A DNA stretch of 5,826 nucleotides from assembly GCA_946481225.1 (NCBI GenBank), contig CAMLNJ010000224.1:1-5826 (forward strand). Direction: 5' to 3'. Shown in pieces: positions 1 to 5,826 of the stretch. The position numbers and the translations under genes are program-made. The stretch's first letter is position 1, and each line of letters opens with the position of its first letter. Origin of the DNA: an uncultured Verrucomicrobiota bacterium (GTDB lineage: Bacteria; Verrucomicrobiota; Verrucomicrobiae; Opitutales; Opitutaceae). The notes under the pieces were generated by a model. It was not told the origin of the DNA. It saw only the letters and a program-made list of their open reading frames with translations, and did not search any database.

Positions 1-131
1 CACAGGACGTCGTCCTGGCTCACGGAATGCAGCGTCGACGAGAAGACCCGGGAGCGAAACTGCTCGATATGGCGGTCGCTGGCCTCTCCGGAGCTGGACT
101 CGGACGCGCCCGGGAAGCTGGTCTTCGTCAT
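1..131 (-). CDS. N-terminal 43 residues of a divergent gene, possibly a GAF-type sensor protein (3' part outside window)
   Basis: A minus-strand frame begins with ATG at 131-129 and stays open to the window edge; an in-frame TAA lies just upstream (149-147), so the start is bounded. The translation begins MTKTSFPGASESSSGEASD, followed by RHIEQFRSRVFSSTLHS and then VSQDDVL before the edge. It is a polar, Ser-rich leader followed by an amphipathic helix. The pattern RHIxxFRxRVF...QDDVL resembles, from memory, the lead-in to GAF domains of bacterial sensor kinases (…EDVLW…); this is a weak family inference. Third-position GC is high, but the opposing plus frame uses the same third positions, so GC3 cannot separate them. 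No Shine-Dalgarno motif is visible, as for the other genes here. An alternative is that the frame is chance and the plus-strand membrane gene extends left through this region. Confidence 0.5.
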   Translation of the reverse strand, partial: MTKTSFPGASESSSGEASDRHIEQFRSRVFSSTLHSVSQDDVL

Positions 132-156
132 CAATGCGGTCGACGATTATGGTTTT

Positions 157-1092
157 GTGGGGTCCGCGCCCTACGCTCCGGCAAGCATCGCGTTCTCCAC
201 CTTGCACATGGCCGGCTCGGCCGTCTTCGCCTGGCGGCTCTGGCGGCGCAATCTCGCCGCGCCCGCGGCCCGCGGGCATCTCCGCGTCGCCCTCGCTTTC
301 CTGGTCGCCTCCGGGCTCGGCCCGCTCGCGCTCGGTCCCATCGCCGCGTTTGGCCTGCGCGACACGCCGCCCTACCAGCTCTGCATCTACTTTTACCTCC
401 ACGCCCAATACAACGGCTGGTTCCTCTTCTTCCTCCAGGCGCTCGCGCTTCATGAACGCGCGGTCAATGGCGAGACCCCGCCCGACCGCCGCGCCTCCAC
501 GCTCGCGCTCCGCTGGCTTGGTGTCGGGGCGGTCCTCACGCTCGCGCAATCCACGCTTTGGCTCGGCCCGCCCGCGTGGGTCCACGTGGTCGCGGGCCTC
601 GGCGGCGTCGCGCAACTCGTGGGCTTCGGCTATCTTCTTCGCGCCCTGCACGGCGCGGGCGGCGTCGCCGCGTCGGGTGGCGCCGCCCGCGCGCTGACCT
701 CGCTCGCCCTCGGCGCCTTCGGGCTGAAACTGGTTCTCCAAACCGCCGCGGCCTGGCCCGGTCTCGCCGCCCTCGCCGGCCATCGCTTCGTGGTCATCGC
801 CTTTCTGCACCTCGTTTTCCTCGGCGTCGTTACTCCTGCGATCCTCGCCTGGGCGCTGCGGGCGCGCTGGTTGCGCGATGGACTCGTCGTCCGTCTTGGG
901 CTTGGGATCTTCTTCGTCGCCGCGGCCGTCTCCGAAGCTGTTCTTGTCGCCGCCGCCTTTGGAATGTCGCCTCCCGGCGGCCTCCCGGGCTTTCTTCTCG
1001 GCACCGCTGTTTTGATGGCGGCGGCCGTTCTGCTTTTGCTTATCGCCTTTCTCCTCCTTGTTTCGCGCCTTCGCCCGATTTCCCCTCCATGA
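157..1092 (+). CDS. Polytopic membrane protein of the FSTLH / YLHxQYNGWF type, N-terminus uncertain or truncated
   Basis: The 311-residue product counted from the GTG at 157 is almost entirely hydrophobic, with about eight or nine membrane helices (roughly residues 9-30, 43-66, 76-98, 115-131, 139-163, 176-199, 207-233, 244-269, 277-303). Recognisable motifs are FSTLH (13-17), SGLGPLALGP (52-61) and YFYLHAQYNGWF (78-89 region, His82); His142 and His218 also lie in or near helices. These motifs recall a family of uncharacterised proteins of about 400 residues, known to me mainly from Bacteroidetes, often near respiratory or nitrogen-oxide genes and possibly distantly related to haem-copper oxidase subunit I. 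Members carry a histidine-rich HAHSH motif about 70 residues before FSTLH, which is not seen here. The reading frame is open to base 1, so the true start may be outside the window; ATG at 208 is another candidate. Its stop overlaps the hemN start by 4 bp (ATGA), implying co-translation. Function unknown; a haem- or metal-binding membrane role is inferred. Confidence 0.8.
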   Translation: MGSAPYAPASIAFSTLHMAGSAVFAWRLWRRNLAAPAARGHLRVALAFLVASGLGPLALGPIAAFGLRDTPPYQLCIYFYLHAQYNGWFLFFLQALALHERAVNGETPPDRRASTLALRWLGVGAVLTLAQSTLWLGPPAWVHVVAGLGGVAQLVGFGYLLRALHGAGGVAASGGAARALTSLALGAFGLKLVLQTAAAWPGLAALAGHRFVVIAFLHLVFLGVVTPAILAWALRARWLRDGLVVRLGLGIFFVAAAVSEAVLVAAAFGMSPPGGLPGFLLGTAVLMAAAVLLLLIAFLLLVSRLRPISPP

Positions 1093-2483
1093 ACGCCTTT
1101 GAATCCCCGCCCGCTCCCGCGCTGGATCTTGCCCTGGTGCGCAAATACTCCGTGGCCGGGCCGCGCTACACGTCCTACCCGCCGGCCACGCGCTTCACCG
1201 CCGGTCCCGCCGACATCGATCTCGAGGCCGCGCTTGCCGAGGACAACGCGTCCGACGAGCGCCCGCTCTCGCTCTACGTCCACCTGCCCTTCTGCGAATC
1301 GCGCTGCTGGTATTGCGGATGCACTACGGTCATCATGCGCGACCACGACCGCGCGAATCCCTACCTCGATTACCTCGAAAAGGAGCTCGCCCTTTACGCG
1401 TCGCGCCTGAACCGCCGCCGCCCCGTCACCCAGCTCCACTTCGGCGGCGGCACGCCCACCTTTCTCGCGCCCGCGCAGCTGCGCCGCCTCGGCGCGATGT
1501 TGCACGAGCGTTTCCGTTTCGCGCCCGACGCCGAGATCAGCGTCGAGATCGACCCGCGTCGCCTCTCGCTCGACCACATCCAGGCGCTGGCCGACATCGG
1601 CGCACGCCGCGCCTCGCTCGGCGTGCAGGACACCAATCCCGAGGTGCAGGCCGCGATCCATCGCCATCAGCCGCACGCGCTCAACGAACAGGCCTTCGCC
1701 TGGCTGCGCGGCGCGGGCTTCAACTCGATCAACGTCGATCTGATCTACGGTCTGCCGCTGCAAACGCCCGACACCATCCACCGCACCATCGAGGAGGTGC
1801 TCGCCCTCGGGCCCGACCGGCTCTCGGTGTTCAGCTACGCGCACGTGCCCTGGCTCAAGCCCGCGCAAAAGATATTCGACGAGCGCGGCCAGTTGCCCGA
1901 CGCCGAGCGCAAGTTGACCATGTTCGCCGCCGCGCACCGCCAGCTCACGGACGCGGGCTACGTCGACATCGGCCTCGACCACTTCGCGCGTCCCGAGGAC
2001 GAGCTCGCCCGCGCCCAGGCCGCCGGCACCTTGCAGCGCAACTTCCAGGGCTACAGCACGCGTGCCGGAGCCTCGCTCTATGGACTCGGCATGTCGTCGA
2101 TCTCGTCCACGCCCGACGTCTATTTCCAAAACCAAAAGACGCTCGCCGAATATCGCGCCGCGCTCGACGCCGGCCGCCTGCCGGTGGAGCGGGGCCTCCG
2201 GCTCACGGAAGAGGACAAGCGCCGCCGCACGATCATCATGCGCGTGATGTGCGACCGTCGCCTCGATTTCGCCGGCCTCTCGCGCGAGTTCGGTTTCGAT
2301 TTCGCGGAAACCTACGCCGCCGAGCTCGCCTCGCTCACGGACCTCGAGGCCGACGGCATCGTGCGCCGCGAGCCGGGCGGTCTGGTCGTCACGCCGCGCG
2401 GCGCGCCCCTCCTGCGCATTGTCGCGATGCGTTTCGACGCGTCGACCTACGCCGCCGCCCGGCAGCACTCGCAGACGGTGTGA
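1089..2483 (+). CDS. hemN: Oxygen-independent coproporphyrinogen III dehydrogenase (radical SAM)
   Basis: The 464-residue product matches the usual HemN length (E. coli about 457). It converts coproporphyrinogen III to protoporphyrinogen IX in the cytoplasm by two oxidative decarboxylations, using SAM and a [4Fe-4S] cluster, so haem can be made without oxygen. The N-terminus has the HemN-type KYSVAGPRYTSYPP segment (19-32). The cluster motif C69-x3-C73-x2-C76-x-C78 follows LYVHLPF, with Tyr63 in the position of the SAM-contacting Tyr. GGGTPT is at 119-124, SVEIDPR at 151-157 (Glu153), HRHQ at 191-194 and NVDLIYGLP at 215-223 (Asp217). NFQGYST at 318-324 supplies the Gln320 that corresponds to the second-SAM contact, and Ile338 is also retained. 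The C-terminal HemN domain follows (about 370-450). These features separate true HemN from HemW-like haem chaperones. ATG at 1089 overlaps the upstream stop; no Shine-Dalgarno is seen, so translation is probably coupled. Confidence 0.96.
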   Translation: MNAFESPPAPALDLALVRKYSVAGPRYTSYPPATRFTAGPADIDLEAALAEDNASDERPLSLYVHLPFCESRCWYCGCTTVIMRDHDRANPYLDYLEKELALYASRLNRRRPVTQLHFGGGTPTFLAPAQLRRLGAMLHERFRFAPDAEISVEIDPRRLSLDHIQALADIGARRASLGVQDTNPEVQAAIHRHQPHALNEQAFAWLRGAGFNSINVDLIYGLPLQTPDTIHRTIEEVLALGPDRLSVFSYAHVPWLKPAQKIFDERGQLPDAERKLTMFAAAHRQLTDAGYVDIGLDHFARPEDELARAQAAGTLQRNFQGYSTRAGASLYGLGMSSISSTPDVYFQNQKTLAEYRAALDAGRLPVERGLRLTEEDKRRRTIIMRVMCDRRLDFAGLSREFGFDFAETYAAELASLTDLEADGIVRREPGGLVVTPRGAPLLRIVAMRFDASTYAAARQHSQTV

Positions 2484-2590: not shown

Positions 2591-4690
2591 CTACTCCAGC
2601 CTAAACCCTTCCGCGGGGTCGTAGGTCACCACGTGGAGGCGGCGCTCCCGCGCCTCGATCCGGCCCGACCAACGAGGCGCCGGCGCGTCCCCGGGTCCGC
2701 CGACGATCTCGATCTCCACCTCGTGCGGACCCGGCGCCAGGCGTTCGCGCCACACGTCGATCGCCGGCCCGTCGTTCGAGATGCCTTTCGCCTCGAATTC
2801 CCGTTCCGCCATGCGTCCGTCCACGCGCAGGAGCACCCGCACCGGCGAGCGCCGCGGCTTCTCCCTTGGCGCGCCGCGCATATGCACCGGCGTTCCGGCG
2901 TCATCCCGAGTCTCGGCGGCCGCGATCCGCGCGCCGAACACCTTGAACGAGAACACCAGCTCCGGCGCGGTCGGTTCCGGGTTCGCCACCTGCAAGCGGC
3001 TCAGCCCCAACGTCACCGCAAGCACGAGTCCGCAGAGCGCGCCGAGCGCCGCGATCCGTGGAAAACTCCACGACGCGGCGACCATGGCGGCCTTTCCGCC
3101 TCGCGCAAAATCCGCCGCCTCGCGCGCCAGCGCCCCGGCGTCGGCGGGAGTGTAGTCCGCCACCCGCCAACCGCCCGTGGCGCCGCCCGCGCGCGCGGGC
3201 CGAAACTTCGGGTGACGCTCCCCCGCGAGCCGATCGGCGATCCATCGATTCCCGTCGCGCGCCGCCGCCTCGGCCCGCGCGTCGCGCACGATCAGGACGC
3301 GCGCCACGCCTTCGGCCAGCAGGCGCTCGACGAATTTCGGACGCACCCAGCCCGCGGTCGGCACGGCATGCACCTGATAATCGGGTAAACGCGCGCGCCA
3401 GACGGCCTCGTTGAAAAAATTCATCCCGCCGCAGGCGTCCGCCGCGACGAGCGCCACGCACACCGCCCGCCCCGGCGCCTGCGCGGCGCGGGCCTCGGCC
3501 TGGATGCGGGGCTCGATCGCCACGGCGTCGAACCACGGCAGATGCATCGCCTCCGAGTCGCAGGAGCCCACGCACACCGCGCAGCCCACGCAGCGCGAAG
3601 GGTCCACCCAGGCTTGGGTCGGGAGGCGTTTCCCGTCGGTTCTCGGCACCATGCGCACGGCGTCGAAGGGGCAATCCTGCACGCATTGGGTGCAGGCGTG
3701 GCAACGGTCGGCCTCGACCACGGTCTGGAAGTTCGCGGACGGCCGCACGCCATTCTCGTCCGCGCGCGGCGTGAAGCGCCGCCCCAGAAGCCAGGGCAGC
3801 CCCGCCGCGAGGACAAAGCCCCCGCCGAGCACCAGCCACAGCCCGCCCTCCCGGAAGCGCAGCGCGAGCGCGAGCGGGGTGAGATACCAGGCGTCGACCG
3901 TGAGATGCGCCGCCTTCTCCGCCATCGCGGCCGGCGCGTCGAGCGGCGCCGGCGCCAGCCAGGCGGCGAGCGCGAGCGGCAGCAGAAAGGCGACGACCAG
4001 ACGGCGATCGGGCAGGAGTCGCACGCGATTCAGGCGGATGAGGTGCGCCACGAGCCCCAGCGCGATCACCAGCGGCAGGAGCATGTGCAGGAAGAATACG
4101 ACGAAGAACAACAGGCTCGGCACGAGCCGGTCGGTGAGAAACAGGCGGCTCAAGGGTTCGCCGAAAATCGGCAGCGCATCGAGCGACCCCATCGAGGTGA
4201 CGGCGATCTTTTGCGCCGGCTGGTCCCAGGCCAGCCAGAGGCCCGTCCAGCCGATGAACCAGACGAGGCCCACCAGCGCCACGCCGCTGGCCCAGGGCAG
4301 CCAGCGCGCGCCGGTGAACTTGCGCGCGAAAAACATCCGCGCCGCGTGGACGAGGAGGAAGAACATCACCAGGTCCGAGCTGTAGCGATGCAGCGCGCGC
4401 ACCCAGCCGCCGAGGCTCCGGCCGCGCAGCGCATCGAGCGAGGCGTGGGCCTGCGCGAGGCTCGACGAATACCAGATCAACAGGAGCACGCCCGAGGCGA
4501 CGGCGACGAGCAGGGCGAGGTTGGCAATGCGTCCGGCCTGGCCGAGCGGGTCCGCCCCCGCCGGCAGGACGCGGGCGAAAGCGCCGTCGAGACGGGCGAG
4601 GACGTTGTCCACCCGCGCGAGGACCGCCTCGCCTCGCGCCGATGGCGCGGGGGCCGGCCCGGGATTCTCCGGACGAGAGGAGCCGCTCAT
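2591..4690 (-). CDS. Cytochrome b / 2x[4Fe-4S] ferredoxin / FlpD(MvhD)-like fusion protein with C-terminal periplasmic domain
   Basis: A 699-residue electron-transfer fusion. Residues about 50-305 form a cytochrome b: His101/His115 on helix B and His202/His216 on helix D, each pair 14 apart, are the expected axial ligands of haems bL and bH, and TGLWLAWDQPAQ (149-160) matches the helix-C signature. The Qo-type PEWY motif appears as DAWY (266-269), losing Pro and Glu. Residues 330-340 (CxxCxxCxxxCP) and 367-377 (CxxCxxCxxxC) bind two [4Fe-4S] clusters. Residues about 408-490 resemble the FlpD/MvhD hydrogenase-delta domain (GWVRPKFVERLLAEGV…DGNRW) but lack most of its cysteines (Cys411 and Cys420 remain). 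A seventh helix (about 541-563) leads to a beta-rich, Ig-like tail (about 575-699). With the N-terminus inside, six helices place the Fe-S and FlpD parts in the cytoplasm and the tail in the periplasm. The start ATG overlaps the SCO stop (ATGA), so the two are coupled. A menaquinol/quinone electron-transfer role is inferred; the partner is unknown. Confidence 0.9.
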   Translation of the reverse strand: MSGSSRPENPGPAPAPSARGEAVLARVDNVLARLDGAFARVLPAGADPLGQAGRIANLALLVAVASGVLLLIWYSSSLAQAHASLDALRGRSLGGWVRALHRYSSDLVMFFLLVHAARMFFARKFTGARWLPWASGVALVGLVWFIGWTGLWLAWDQPAQKIAVTSMGSLDALPIFGEPLSRLFLTDRLVPSLLFFVVFFLHMLLPLVIALGLVAHLIRLNRVRLLPDRRLVVAFLLPLALAAWLAPAPLDAPAAMAEKAAHLTVDAWYLTPLALALRFREGGLWLVLGGGFVLAAGLPWLLGRRFTPRADENGVRPSANFQTVVEADRCHACTQCVQDCPFDAVRMVPRTDGKRLPTQAWVDPSRCVGCAVCVGSCDSEAMHLPWFDAVAIEPRIQAEARAAQAPGRAVCVALVAADACGGMNFFNEAVWRARLPDYQVHAVPTAGWVRPKFVERLLAEGVARVLIVRDARAEAAARDGNRWIADRLAGERHPKFRPARAGGATGGWRVADYTPADAGALAREAADFARGGKAAMVAASWSFPRIAALGALCGLVLAVTLGLSRLQVANPEPTAPELVFSFKVFGARIAAAETRDDAGTPVHMRGAPREKPRRSPVRVLLRVDGRMAEREFEAKGISNDGPAIDVWRERLAPGPHEVEIEIVGGPGDAPAPRWSGRIEARERRLHVVTYDPAEGFRLE

Positions 4691-5688
4691 GGATGGGCGG
4701 CGACGGCGACCTCGGGGACCTCGGCGGCGAGCGCGAGCACGGCCTCGCGGAGCCAGCCCTGGTGGCGAGGGTCGAGATTGAAGCGGTAGGCGACGCGGCC
4801 CTCGGCATCGATGAGGATGAAGAGATTGGCGTGGTCGATCACGCCGGTCTCGGGGTTCCGCCGGGCGGAAAACTGGAAATCGCGCAGGACGGGCCGCATG
4901 CGCTCCGGCGCGCCGTTGAGATAGCGGAAGGCGGGGTAGCCGAGCCCGTAGGCGTCGGCGACGCCGGCCATCAGATCGGTGGTGTCGTATTCGGGATTCA
5001 GCGACAACGCCACGACGTCCAGCCGCGACCTGACCCGGGGAGGCAGGCCTTCGAGCAGCTCGCGCACCTGCGCAAGGATCTGCGGGCAGGTGGTCGAGCA
5101 AAGCGCATAGACGCCGGTGACCAGCGTCACGCGTCCGCGCAGATCGGCGAGCGCGACGGGCCGGCCGCGGTGGTCGGCGAGGGCGAAGTCGGGCGGCGCG
5201 AGCCGGGTGCGGATGCGTTCGCCCGGAAAGGGAGGCGGCGCCTCGGCCACGGAGGGCGGGCGCCCGTAGGCGTAGAGCGCGGAGGCGACCGCGAGCCCAG
5301 CGGCGAGCCCCAGCGCGGCGGCGCGGTGGTGCCGCCGCCATGAAGCCGTCGCCCCCGCGGCCCCGCGTGCGCCGAAGCGCCAGACGACCAGCAGGAGGCC
5401 CACGATGAAGGCCGGCTCGGCCAACATGATCACGACCGACATCCACTCCATCCCGCCGGTGCGCGGGTCGTAGCTGAAGCACCAGATCTTGAACTCCCGG
5501 GAGAAGTCGCTCCACGCGCCCCAGCCCGCGGGGGCGAAGATCACGAGCAGCAAAAACACCTCGTAGACCAAGGTGGCCATGCCGAGGAAGGCGGGCAGCC
5601 CGTAGCCGGTGAAAAAGGTCCCCAGCGTCTCCCGCAGGCGGCGAAGCCAGGCGGGAGCGCGGGGCGCGGGATCGAAGGCGGGGGCCAT
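4687..5688 (-). CDS. SCO1/SenC-family copper chaperone with N-terminal three-helix membrane extension
   Basis: The 333-residue product has a C-terminal thioredoxin-fold SCO domain (about 160-320). The copper ligands are C197-STT-C201-P and His286 in VIDHANLF, 85 residues later, matching the spacing in known SCO proteins. SCO proteins deliver copper to, or reduce the cysteines of, CuA sites, mainly in cytochrome c oxidase; related copies serve other copper reductases. Instead of the usual single anchor there are about three helices (31-52, 82-104, 121-141). The first two are joined by a conserved-looking loop containing FKIWCFSYDPRTGGMEW (66-82), so the N-terminal part may be a fused membrane subunit. 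The SCO domain would face the periplasm. ATG at 5688 was chosen because the frame upstream is bounded by the previous gene's stop and residues before it look non-coding; no Shine-Dalgarno is visible. The gene lies 66 bp after the preceding one and overlaps the next by 4 bp, indicating one operon. Confidence 0.92.
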   Translation of the reverse strand: MAPAFDPAPRAPAWLRRLRETLGTFFTGYGLPAFLGMATLVYEVFLLLVIFAPAGWGAWSDFSREFKIWCFSYDPRTGGMEWMSVVIMLAEPAFIVGLLLVVWRFGARGAAGATASWRRHHRAAALGLAAGLAVASALYAYGRPPSVAEAPPPFPGERIRTRLAPPDFALADHRGRPVALADLRGRVTLVTGVYALCSTTCPQILAQVRELLEGLPPRVRSRLDVVALSLNPEYDTTDLMAGVADAYGLGYPAFRYLNGAPERMRPVLRDFQFSARRNPETGVIDHANLFILIDAEGRVAYRFNLDPRHQGWLREAVLALAAEVPEVAVAAHP

Positions 5689-5754: not shown

Positions 5755-5826
5755 TCAGCGGACGTGCCAGACGTCGGCGAGGGCCTTCCAGTTGGCGAAG
5801 TAGTAGACGGCGAAGCAGGCGAGGAA
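5755..5826 (-). CDS. C-terminal 23 residues of a membrane protein (5' part outside window)
   Basis: The minus-strand frame is open from the right edge to a TGA at 5757-5755. The visible end is FLACFAVYYFANW followed by KALADVWHVR, that is, a hydrophobic, aromatic stretch like the end of a membrane helix followed by a short charged tail with His. The frame runs in the same direction as the SCO gene, 66 bp upstream of it, and is the likely previous gene of the operon. Because SCO proteins usually sit beside the copper enzyme they assemble, an oxidase or NO-reductase membrane subunit is a reasonable guess, but 23 residues do not identify the family. Confidence 0.6.
   Translation of the reverse strand, partial: FLACFAVYYFANWKALADVWHVR

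What the first reader, a model, noticed from the sequence alone, without database searches (positions are those of the whole stretch)
2591..4690. Five-part redox fusion: cytochrome b + two [4Fe-4S] + FlpD-like + helix + periplasmic Ig-like tail
The sequence shows a complete di-haem cytochrome b core, eight Fe-S cysteines in two four-cysteine motifs, a stretch resembling the FlpD/MvhD domain of hydrogenase/heterodisulfide-reductase electron transfer, then a seventh helix and a beta-rich tail, all in one frame without a break. Known bc-type complexes keep cytochrome b separate from ferredoxin-like and FlpD parts. The arrangement could let a quinone-linked cytochrome b exchange electrons directly with a cytoplasmic partner while the tail docks a periplasmic one. 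This is the strongest candidate here for an undescribed respiratory module.
Basis: partly seen in the sequence, partly recalled or inferred. Interest (0 to 1): 0.8.

Follow-up and report, generated by a model that had tools for sequence, protein, structure and literature searches.

The report
Cytochrome b–ferredoxin partner of eNOR
The window encodes an unusual membrane protein that fuses a haem-carrying cytochrome b to two iron-sulfur clusters, and in the genomes sampled its gene sits almost always beside an unconventional nitric-oxide-reducing enzyme, so it is probably that enzyme's own electron supply or assembly partner.

Summary
The frame is real: haem His and Fe-S Cys are conserved in essentially all of 269 aligned homologues.

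In relatives the gene ends an operon of CuA subunit II, haem-copper subunit I, SCO and this fusion. Subunit I has Gln at the active-site Tyr position, the published eNOR (nitric oxide reductase) signature, in 29 of 29. The fusion is in 67 of 70 sampled eNOR genomes (56 of 59 not seeded by the fusion) and 0 of 78 eNOR-negative ones. In the window's own clade the FlpD domain has lost its cysteines, so FlpD coupling is not supported here.

Best reading: a dedicated electron-transfer partner of eNOR, linking quinol and cytoplasmic Fe-S to the CuA/NO site (inferred). Main rival: a CcoG-like copper-reducing assembly factor. Ten searches of the held papers found no description of the module, but the main eNOR paper could not be read.

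The parts
2591..4690 (-). Fusion gene: cytochrome b (helices A-F) - 2x[4Fe-4S] - FlpD-like - TM7 - beta tail, 699 aa
4025..4546 (-). Cytochrome b helices A-D (residues 49-222) with haem ligands H101, H115, H202, H216
   Evidence: PF00033/PF13631; His 269 of 269; bc1 cytochrome b fold
3785..4006 (-). Helices E-F and ef loop (residues 229-302), loop predicted on the periplasmic side
   Evidence: AlphaFold2; aligned to bc1 cytochrome b beyond helix D, 251 residues within model 49..306
3884..3895 (-). D266-A-W-Y, the position of the bc1 PEWY motif; Glu absent
   Evidence: D266 269 of 269, Glu at 267 in 0 of 269; PEWY present in bc1 cytochrome b of three host genomes; correspondence by eye from flanking sequence and structure
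3671..3703 (-). First [4Fe-4S] motif C330-C333-C336-C340
   Evidence: Fer4; 269 of 269
3560..3592 (-). Second [4Fe-4S] motif C367-C370-C373-C377
   Evidence: Fer4-type dicluster; 268-269 of 269
3104..3460 (-). FlpD/MvhD-like domain without cluster cysteines (residues 411-529)
   Evidence: sub-threshold PF02662; family profile matches hydrogenase iron-sulfur subunit D, 9sw2_D; Cys lost in this clade
2999..3064 (-). Seventh transmembrane helix (residues 543-564)
   Evidence: AlphaFold2
2594..2998 (-). C-terminal beta-sandwich tail (residues 565-699), predicted periplasmic, conserved H603-M604
   Evidence: separate 172-aa ORF in Defluviimonas
4687..5688 (-). SCO1/SenC protein with N-terminal membrane extension; stop overlaps the fusion start by 4 bases
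   Evidence: PF02630 68.8 bits; CSTTC motif and ATGA overlap
5755..5826 (-). Last 23 codons and stop of haem-copper (eNOR-type) subunit I
   Evidence: C-terminus closely matches that of L001 subunit I; same gene order in relatives

Best explanation
It is a dedicated electron-transfer subunit, or tightly bound partner, of an eNOR-type nitric oxide reductase. The bc1-like di-haem cytochrome b takes electrons from (mena)quinol, or exchanges them with it, and connects the membrane to two cytoplasmic-side [4Fe-4S] clusters. The eNOR (CuA subunit II plus haem-copper subunit I) receives electrons on the periplasmic side and reduces NO to N2O. The seventh helix and beta tail would anchor or dock the module against the periplasmic CuA domain. 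FlpD was an ancestral coupling domain that has lost its cluster in the window's clade. Shown: domain content, cofactor ligands, predicted fold, operon, co-occurrence. Inferred: topology (from the bc1 fold), quinol oxidation, physical complex, direction of electron flow.
For: Haem and Fe-S ligands kept in essentially all of 269 aligned members (rows dropped are told in the observation check). bc1-like fold including the ef loop. Operon order CuA subunit II - subunit I - SCO - fusion; subunit I found in 29 of 34 relatives' loci, with four of the other five cut by contig ends. Gln at the crosslinked-Tyr position in 29 of 29 subunit I, and CxxxCxxxHxxM in 25 of 25 subunit II (position set by alignment to ba3 oxidase). 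Gln is the eNOR signature (PMC8756737, passages read). In the phylum and order draws, the fusion is in 67 of 70 eNOR genomes, 56 of 59 when those first found through the fusion are dropped, and 0 of 78 eNOR-negative genomes. The Gln motif is in 62 of 62 of the loci fetched for those 70 (8 genomes had no locus). Same strand within 2.5 kb downstream in 63 of 70. By motif, no cytochrome c or Rieske gene inside the operon of the 34 loci or the window. NirK above cut-off in 13 of 23 hosts, on the eNOR contig in 8.
Against: The PEWY Glu is absent in all 269, and in the short variants the W-Y also goes while the Asp stays, so quinol oxidation at a Qo-like site is not assured. All 23 hosts have the Alternative Complex III marker ActD, so another quinol-to-periplasm route exists. 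The two inspected eNOR clusters on a Thermus and a Thermomicrobium plasmid have no such gene, and tblastn finds the fusion on the Defluviimonas plasmid only. eNOR is reported to take electrons from cytochrome c (PMC8879329, passage read). One eNOR genome, G758, lacks the fusion with no contig end to blame. The SCO neighbour and the CcoG-like layout also fit an assembly role. No structure of a complex was computed.
Confidence: 0.5

Rival explanations
1. Assembly factor: a CcoG-like cupric reductase (or reductant of SCO) that carries electrons across the membrane to supply Cu(I) for the CuA and CuB centres of eNOR.
For: Gene overlaps and follows SCO. CcoG also combines two [4Fe-4S] clusters with a C-terminal periplasmic Ig-like domain and is a cupric reductase (PMC7558416, passages read). 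The two inspected eNOR clusters without the fusion, on a T. roseum and a Thermus plasmid, also show no annotated SCO within the stretch (that gene table is incomplete).
Against: A separate CcoG above the family cut-off exists in 20 of 23 hosts. A full bc1-type di-haem core with an ef loop is not part of CcoG (recalled). The tail shows no specific structural match and no FixG_C Pfam hit at E <= 0.1.
Confidence: 0.3
2. Rieske-free bifurcating module: quinol gives one electron to the periplasmic CuA/NO branch and the other through the b haems to the cytoplasmic [4Fe-4S] clusters (and FlpD partner where present), making low-potential reductant.
For: Complete bc1-like core plus dicluster domain after helix F; FlpD cluster ligands kept in many relatives (4 of 4 positions in 89 of 269).
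Against: No Rieske in the locus; PEWY Glu gone; FlpD Cys lost in 121 of 269, including the window; no conserved cytoplasmic partner gene recognised in the operon.
Confidence: 0.12
3. Reverse wire: cytoplasmic reductant enters through the Fe-S clusters and reduces quinone or eNOR (NO detoxification), without quinol oxidation.
For: Invariant Fe-S clusters beside an altered Qo motif; FlpD with cysteines in relatives.
Against: No dehydrogenase partner recognised as conserved nearby; FlpD degenerate in the window.
Confidence: 0.08

Closest known systems
Cytochrome b of bc1/b6f complexes
   Same: Fold of helices A-F, four haem His with 14-residue spacing in each helix pair, cd and ef loops
   Different: No PEWY Glu, no Rieske or cytochrome c gene in the operon, fused to Fe-S, FlpD-like and beta domains
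eNOR (B-family haem-copper NO reductase, formerly ba3-a1)
   Same: Partner operon of relatives: CuA subunit II, subunit I with Gln at the Tyr position, SCO
   Different: The passages read name subunits I and II and SCO; the fusion is not described in them
FlpD/MvhD of hydrogenase-Hdr complexes
   Same: Family profile matches hydrogenase iron-sulfur subunit D, 9sw2_D, 39.9 bits (that this is MvhD is recalled); Cys present in many relatives
   Different: Window copy lacks the cluster cysteines and is below the Pfam cut-off
CcoG/FixG cupric reductase
   Same: Two [4Fe-4S], membrane protein, C-terminal periplasmic beta domain, encoded by a haem-copper enzyme
   Different: Di-haem bc1-like core and FlpD domain here; CcoG is a separate gene in 20 of 23 hosts
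ORF RME88945.1, PMC8756737 Table A3
   Same: Listed with cytochrome b6, DMSOR-beta-like and FlpD domains
   Different: Listed because it carries a homologue of their cytochrome c C1 domain; not discussed further in the passages read; its sequence was not examined here
ExtP b-type cytochrome (NCBIfam NF040969)
   Same: Best NCBIfam match, residues 53-222 (82.9 bits)
   Different: Far below its cut-off of 290 bits

Membership tests
Cytochrome bc1/b6f cytochrome b | Four His ligands for two b haems | tested here: met
   269 of 269; L007, left out as truncated, has Tyr for H115
Cytochrome bc1/b6f cytochrome b | PEWY motif with Glu in the Qo site | tested here: not met
   Glu in 0 of 269; reads DxW(Y/F)
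Cytochrome bc1/b6f complex | Rieske protein and cytochrome c1/f encoded with cytochrome b | tested here: not met
   by motif, among script-picked ORFs: no Rieske-like ORF within 9 kb and no CxxCH ORF inside the operon in 34 loci and the window; locus only, flanks short in some loci
8Fe ferredoxin (Fer4 dicluster) domain | Two four-Cys motifs | tested here: met
FlpD (PF02662) | Pfam score above gathering cut-off | tested here: not met
   window 14.1 bits against 22.3; met in L010, L018, L021, L029, L034 and L036
FlpD (PF02662) | Cluster cysteines | tested here: not met
   window 0 of 4 positions; 89 of 269 members have all four, 121 none, 59 some
eNOR operon | Gln in place of active-site Tyr in subunit I | tested here: met
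   29 of 29 relatives and 62 of 62 further fetched loci, some of the same genomes; in the window itself only the last 23 codons of subunit I are present, so not testable there
eNOR operon | CuA subunit II | tested here: met
   CxxxCxxxHxxM in 25 of 25 relatives in which the ORF was picked
eNOR | NO reductase activity | not testable with these tools
   needs biochemistry
CcoG/FixG | Match to the CcoG profile or its C-terminal Ig-like fold | tested here: inconclusive
   only the best 25 of 78 NCBIfam matches were shown; tail fold search without a clear family

The most novel reading that the evidence does not exclude
A Rieske-free, bc1-derived electron-bifurcating quinol:NO oxidoreductase. The fusion splits quinol electrons between eNOR's CuA on the outside and low-potential [4Fe-4S] clusters on the inside, so that NO respiration in Verrucomicrobiota, Planctomycetota and Myxococcota would also drive reduction of ferredoxin-like carriers.
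Probability: 0.1. Interest if true: 0.9.

Novelty: new variant of a known kind. Interest (0 to 1): 0.55.

Why it matters
eNOR enzymes make N2O and are often mis-annotated as oxygen reductases (PMC8756737). A nearly obligate, easily recognised genomic companion (56 of 59 unseeded eNOR genomes, 0 of 78 without) gives a marker for this NO-reducing system in three phyla. It also poses a direct question: does the enzyme draw electrons from quinol through its own cytochrome b, or is this its copper-maturation reductase? It would be a cytochrome b lineage that has kept the bc1-like membrane core but lost the PEWY Glu and a Rieske partner while gaining Fe-S domains.

Tried and rejected

Exceptions to the linkage: L007 has a truncated copy (487 aa, H115 replaced by Tyr) with no eNOR subunit I in the 10 kb upstream. 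G758 has eNOR without the fusion. G706 and G1000 also lack it, but their eNOR lies near contig ends. G715 and G626 carry it on the opposite strand, without tail. G628 and G696 have it on another contig. The 78 negatives were the ones that the tables happened to list, out of about 960 eNOR-negative entries in those draws (the first two draws overlap); they are not a random sample. Two genomes drawn (G022, G883) have the tail as a second hit.

Full report

CONSERVATION. I aligned 269 members: 239 of the 240 proteins listed by the two searches (P0090 left out as shorter than 640 aa) plus 30 loci. L007, L030, L031 and L033 were left out as partial or split; the 269 rows hold 267 distinct sequences. 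The four haem His are 269 of 269. Seven Fe-S Cys are 269 of 269 and C370 is 268. D266 is 269 of 269, and the PEWY Glu position is Glu in none. H603 is 268 and M604 269. bc1 cytochrome b of three host genomes does have PEWY. FlpD cysteines (four positions) are complete in 89, absent in 121 and partial in 59. These numbers reflect which proteins the two capped searches listed, not natural frequencies. The profile of the family matches hydrogenase iron-sulfur subunit D (9sw2_D, 39.9 bits), and FlpD scores above cut-off in the six divergent relatives scanned. The window protein belongs to the clade that lost the cysteines: in a 91-row quick tree, a clade of 38 rows with support 100 holds all 34 cysteine-less rows and 4 with residual cysteines.

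CONTEXT. One capped genome scan found 34 loci encoding the fusion (L001-L034; a 35th was a weak ferredoxin match) in records titled Verrucomicrobiota, Planctomycetota, Myxococcota/Deltaproteobacteria and unplaced Proteobacteria. The shared order is: COX1-like paralogue (about 490 aa) - CuA subunit II (about 175 aa) - haem-copper subunit I (about 570 aa) - SCO (about 330 aa) - fusion. With simple ORF picking the counts are 25, 25, 29 and 24 of 34. L008, L013, L025 and L027 are cut by contig ends before subunit I; L007 is a real exception with a truncated copy. In the window, SCO overlaps the fusion start by four bases, and the last 23 codons of subunit I lie at 5826-5755. Subunit I is closest to B-family ba3 oxidase, but the crosslinked-Tyr position is Gln in 29 of 29. 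The CuB His pair and the helix X His are in 29 of 29, and the helix II His in 28, L019 being cut there. Subunit II has CxxxCxxxHxxM in 25 of 25. The COX1-like paralogue keeps His in the helix II, VI and X positions but shows no CuB His pair in the aligned stretch in 25 of 25. Gln at that position defines eNOR (PMC8756737, passages read); eNOR was reported to be a NO reductase using cytochrome c (PMC8879329, passages read).

CO-OCCURRENCE TEST. Subunit I of eNOR type (E <= 1e-60) was found in 5 of 240 genomes drawn from the phylum of G008, 15 of 223 of its order, 38 of 282 of the phylum of G015 and 16 of 294 of the phylum of G020. That is 70 distinct positive genomes. In the 62 loci fetched for them the Gln motif is present in 62 (57 by a strict pattern, 5 by the looser one). 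The fusion profile rings in 67 of the 70. Eleven of the 70 had been found through the fusion; without them it is 56 of 59. Among 78 eNOR-negative genomes listed in the same draws it rings in none. In 63 of 70 it lies on the same strand within 2.5 kb downstream of subunit I. Of the other seven, two carry it on the opposite strand, two on another contig and three lack it (two of these near contig ends). Outside these phyla I inspected three plasmid regions. On a Defluviimonas plasmid the operon has a 526-aa cytochrome b-Fer4-FlpD protein followed by the tail as its own 172-aa ORF. A Thermomicrobium and a Thermus plasmid have eNOR-like subunits I and II with no such gene annotated, and tblastn of the window fusion finds only the Defluviimonas record among the plasmids. 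The tail is therefore a separable module, while cytochrome b-Fer4-FlpD is the common core.

HOSTS. Of 23 host genomes, 4 have a bc1 cytochrome b C-terminal domain, 23 have ActD of Alternative Complex III, 9 have clade II NosZ over cut-off, 20 have CcoG over cut-off and 13 have NirK over cut-off. In 8 of the 13 NirK is on the eNOR contig, 4.3-19.7 kb from the CuA subunit. Most hosts are metagenome-assembled, so absences are soft. By motif, among script-picked ORFs, no Rieske-like gene lies within 9 kb in any of the 34 loci or the window, and no CxxCH ORF lies inside the operon; CxxCH ORFs further out vary between loci, the nearest being a 143-aa ORF just upstream of the paralogue in L021.

MECHANISM. 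The best reading is a dedicated electron-transfer partner of eNOR: quinol and/or cytoplasmic reductant connected through two b haems and two [4Fe-4S] clusters, with the tail on the CuA side (0.5). The invariance of haem and Fe-S ligands across members whose FlpD has decayed says that the cytochrome b-ferredoxin unit, not FlpD, is the essential path. Against it: the Qo Glu is gone, the hosts have ACIII, and some eNORs do without. The main rival is an assembly role: the gene overlaps SCO, and the cupric reductase CcoG also joins two [4Fe-4S] clusters to a periplasmic Ig-like domain (PMC7558416, passages read). Against that, CcoG is separately present in 20 of 23 hosts. Nothing here measures activity, and no complex was modelled.

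NOVELTY. Ten full-text searches, and passages read from PMC8756737, PMC6094997, PMC11388526, PMC7558416, PMC10734462, PMC8879329, PMC6431628 and PMC4013037 (of PMC13038864 only abstract and outline), gave one trace: an ORF listed with cytochrome b6, DMSOR-beta and FlpD domains in a table of PMC8756737. PMC6431628 has a gene-cluster figure that includes the ba3-a1 operon; the picture is not held. The main eNOR paper (PNAS 2024) is not held, so the companion gene may already be drawn there. I therefore rate it a new variant of a known kind, not categorically new.

Noticed in passing
window 1-1092 (+): Divergent hydrophobic, probably multi-helix membrane protein (363 aa, open at the window edge) without any Pfam or NCBIfam match at E <= 0.1.
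   Followed up: no
window 1155-2483 (+): HemN-type oxygen-independent coproporphyrinogen dehydrogenase (radical SAM + HemN_C), divergent from the eNOR operon; ORFs of the same cluster occur in L006, L013 and L017.
   Followed up: partly
L003:4899-6389, L010:5080-6522, L021:4787-6328 and 22 other loci: A COX1-like paralogue heads the operon: His in helices II, VI and X kept, CuB His pair not seen; no PDB match by sequence for L003 at E <= 1. It may be a haem relay or structural subunit.
   Followed up: partly
window 4687-5688 (-): SCO carries a hydrophobic N-terminal membrane extension; in L019 and L034 the SCO region is split into two ORFs.
   Followed up: no
L033 (genome G022) and genome G883: In two genomes of the same phylum draw the tail is a separate hit behind the main protein on the same contig.
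   Followed up: partly
L007:9971-11434: Orphan truncated fusion (487 aa) with haem ligand H115 replaced by Tyr and no eNOR subunit I in 10 kb upstream.
   Followed up: no
L036 (NZ_CP156080.1, Defluviimonas plasmid): eNOR-type operon on a plasmid with haem O synthase and a hemerythrin gene.
   Followed up: no
L018, L020, L022, L024, L029, L033: An Rrf2-type regulator cluster lies near the operon in six loci (one member scanned), and UbiA-like clusters (haem O synthase-like; one member scanned as UbiA) in 15 loci.
   Followed up: no
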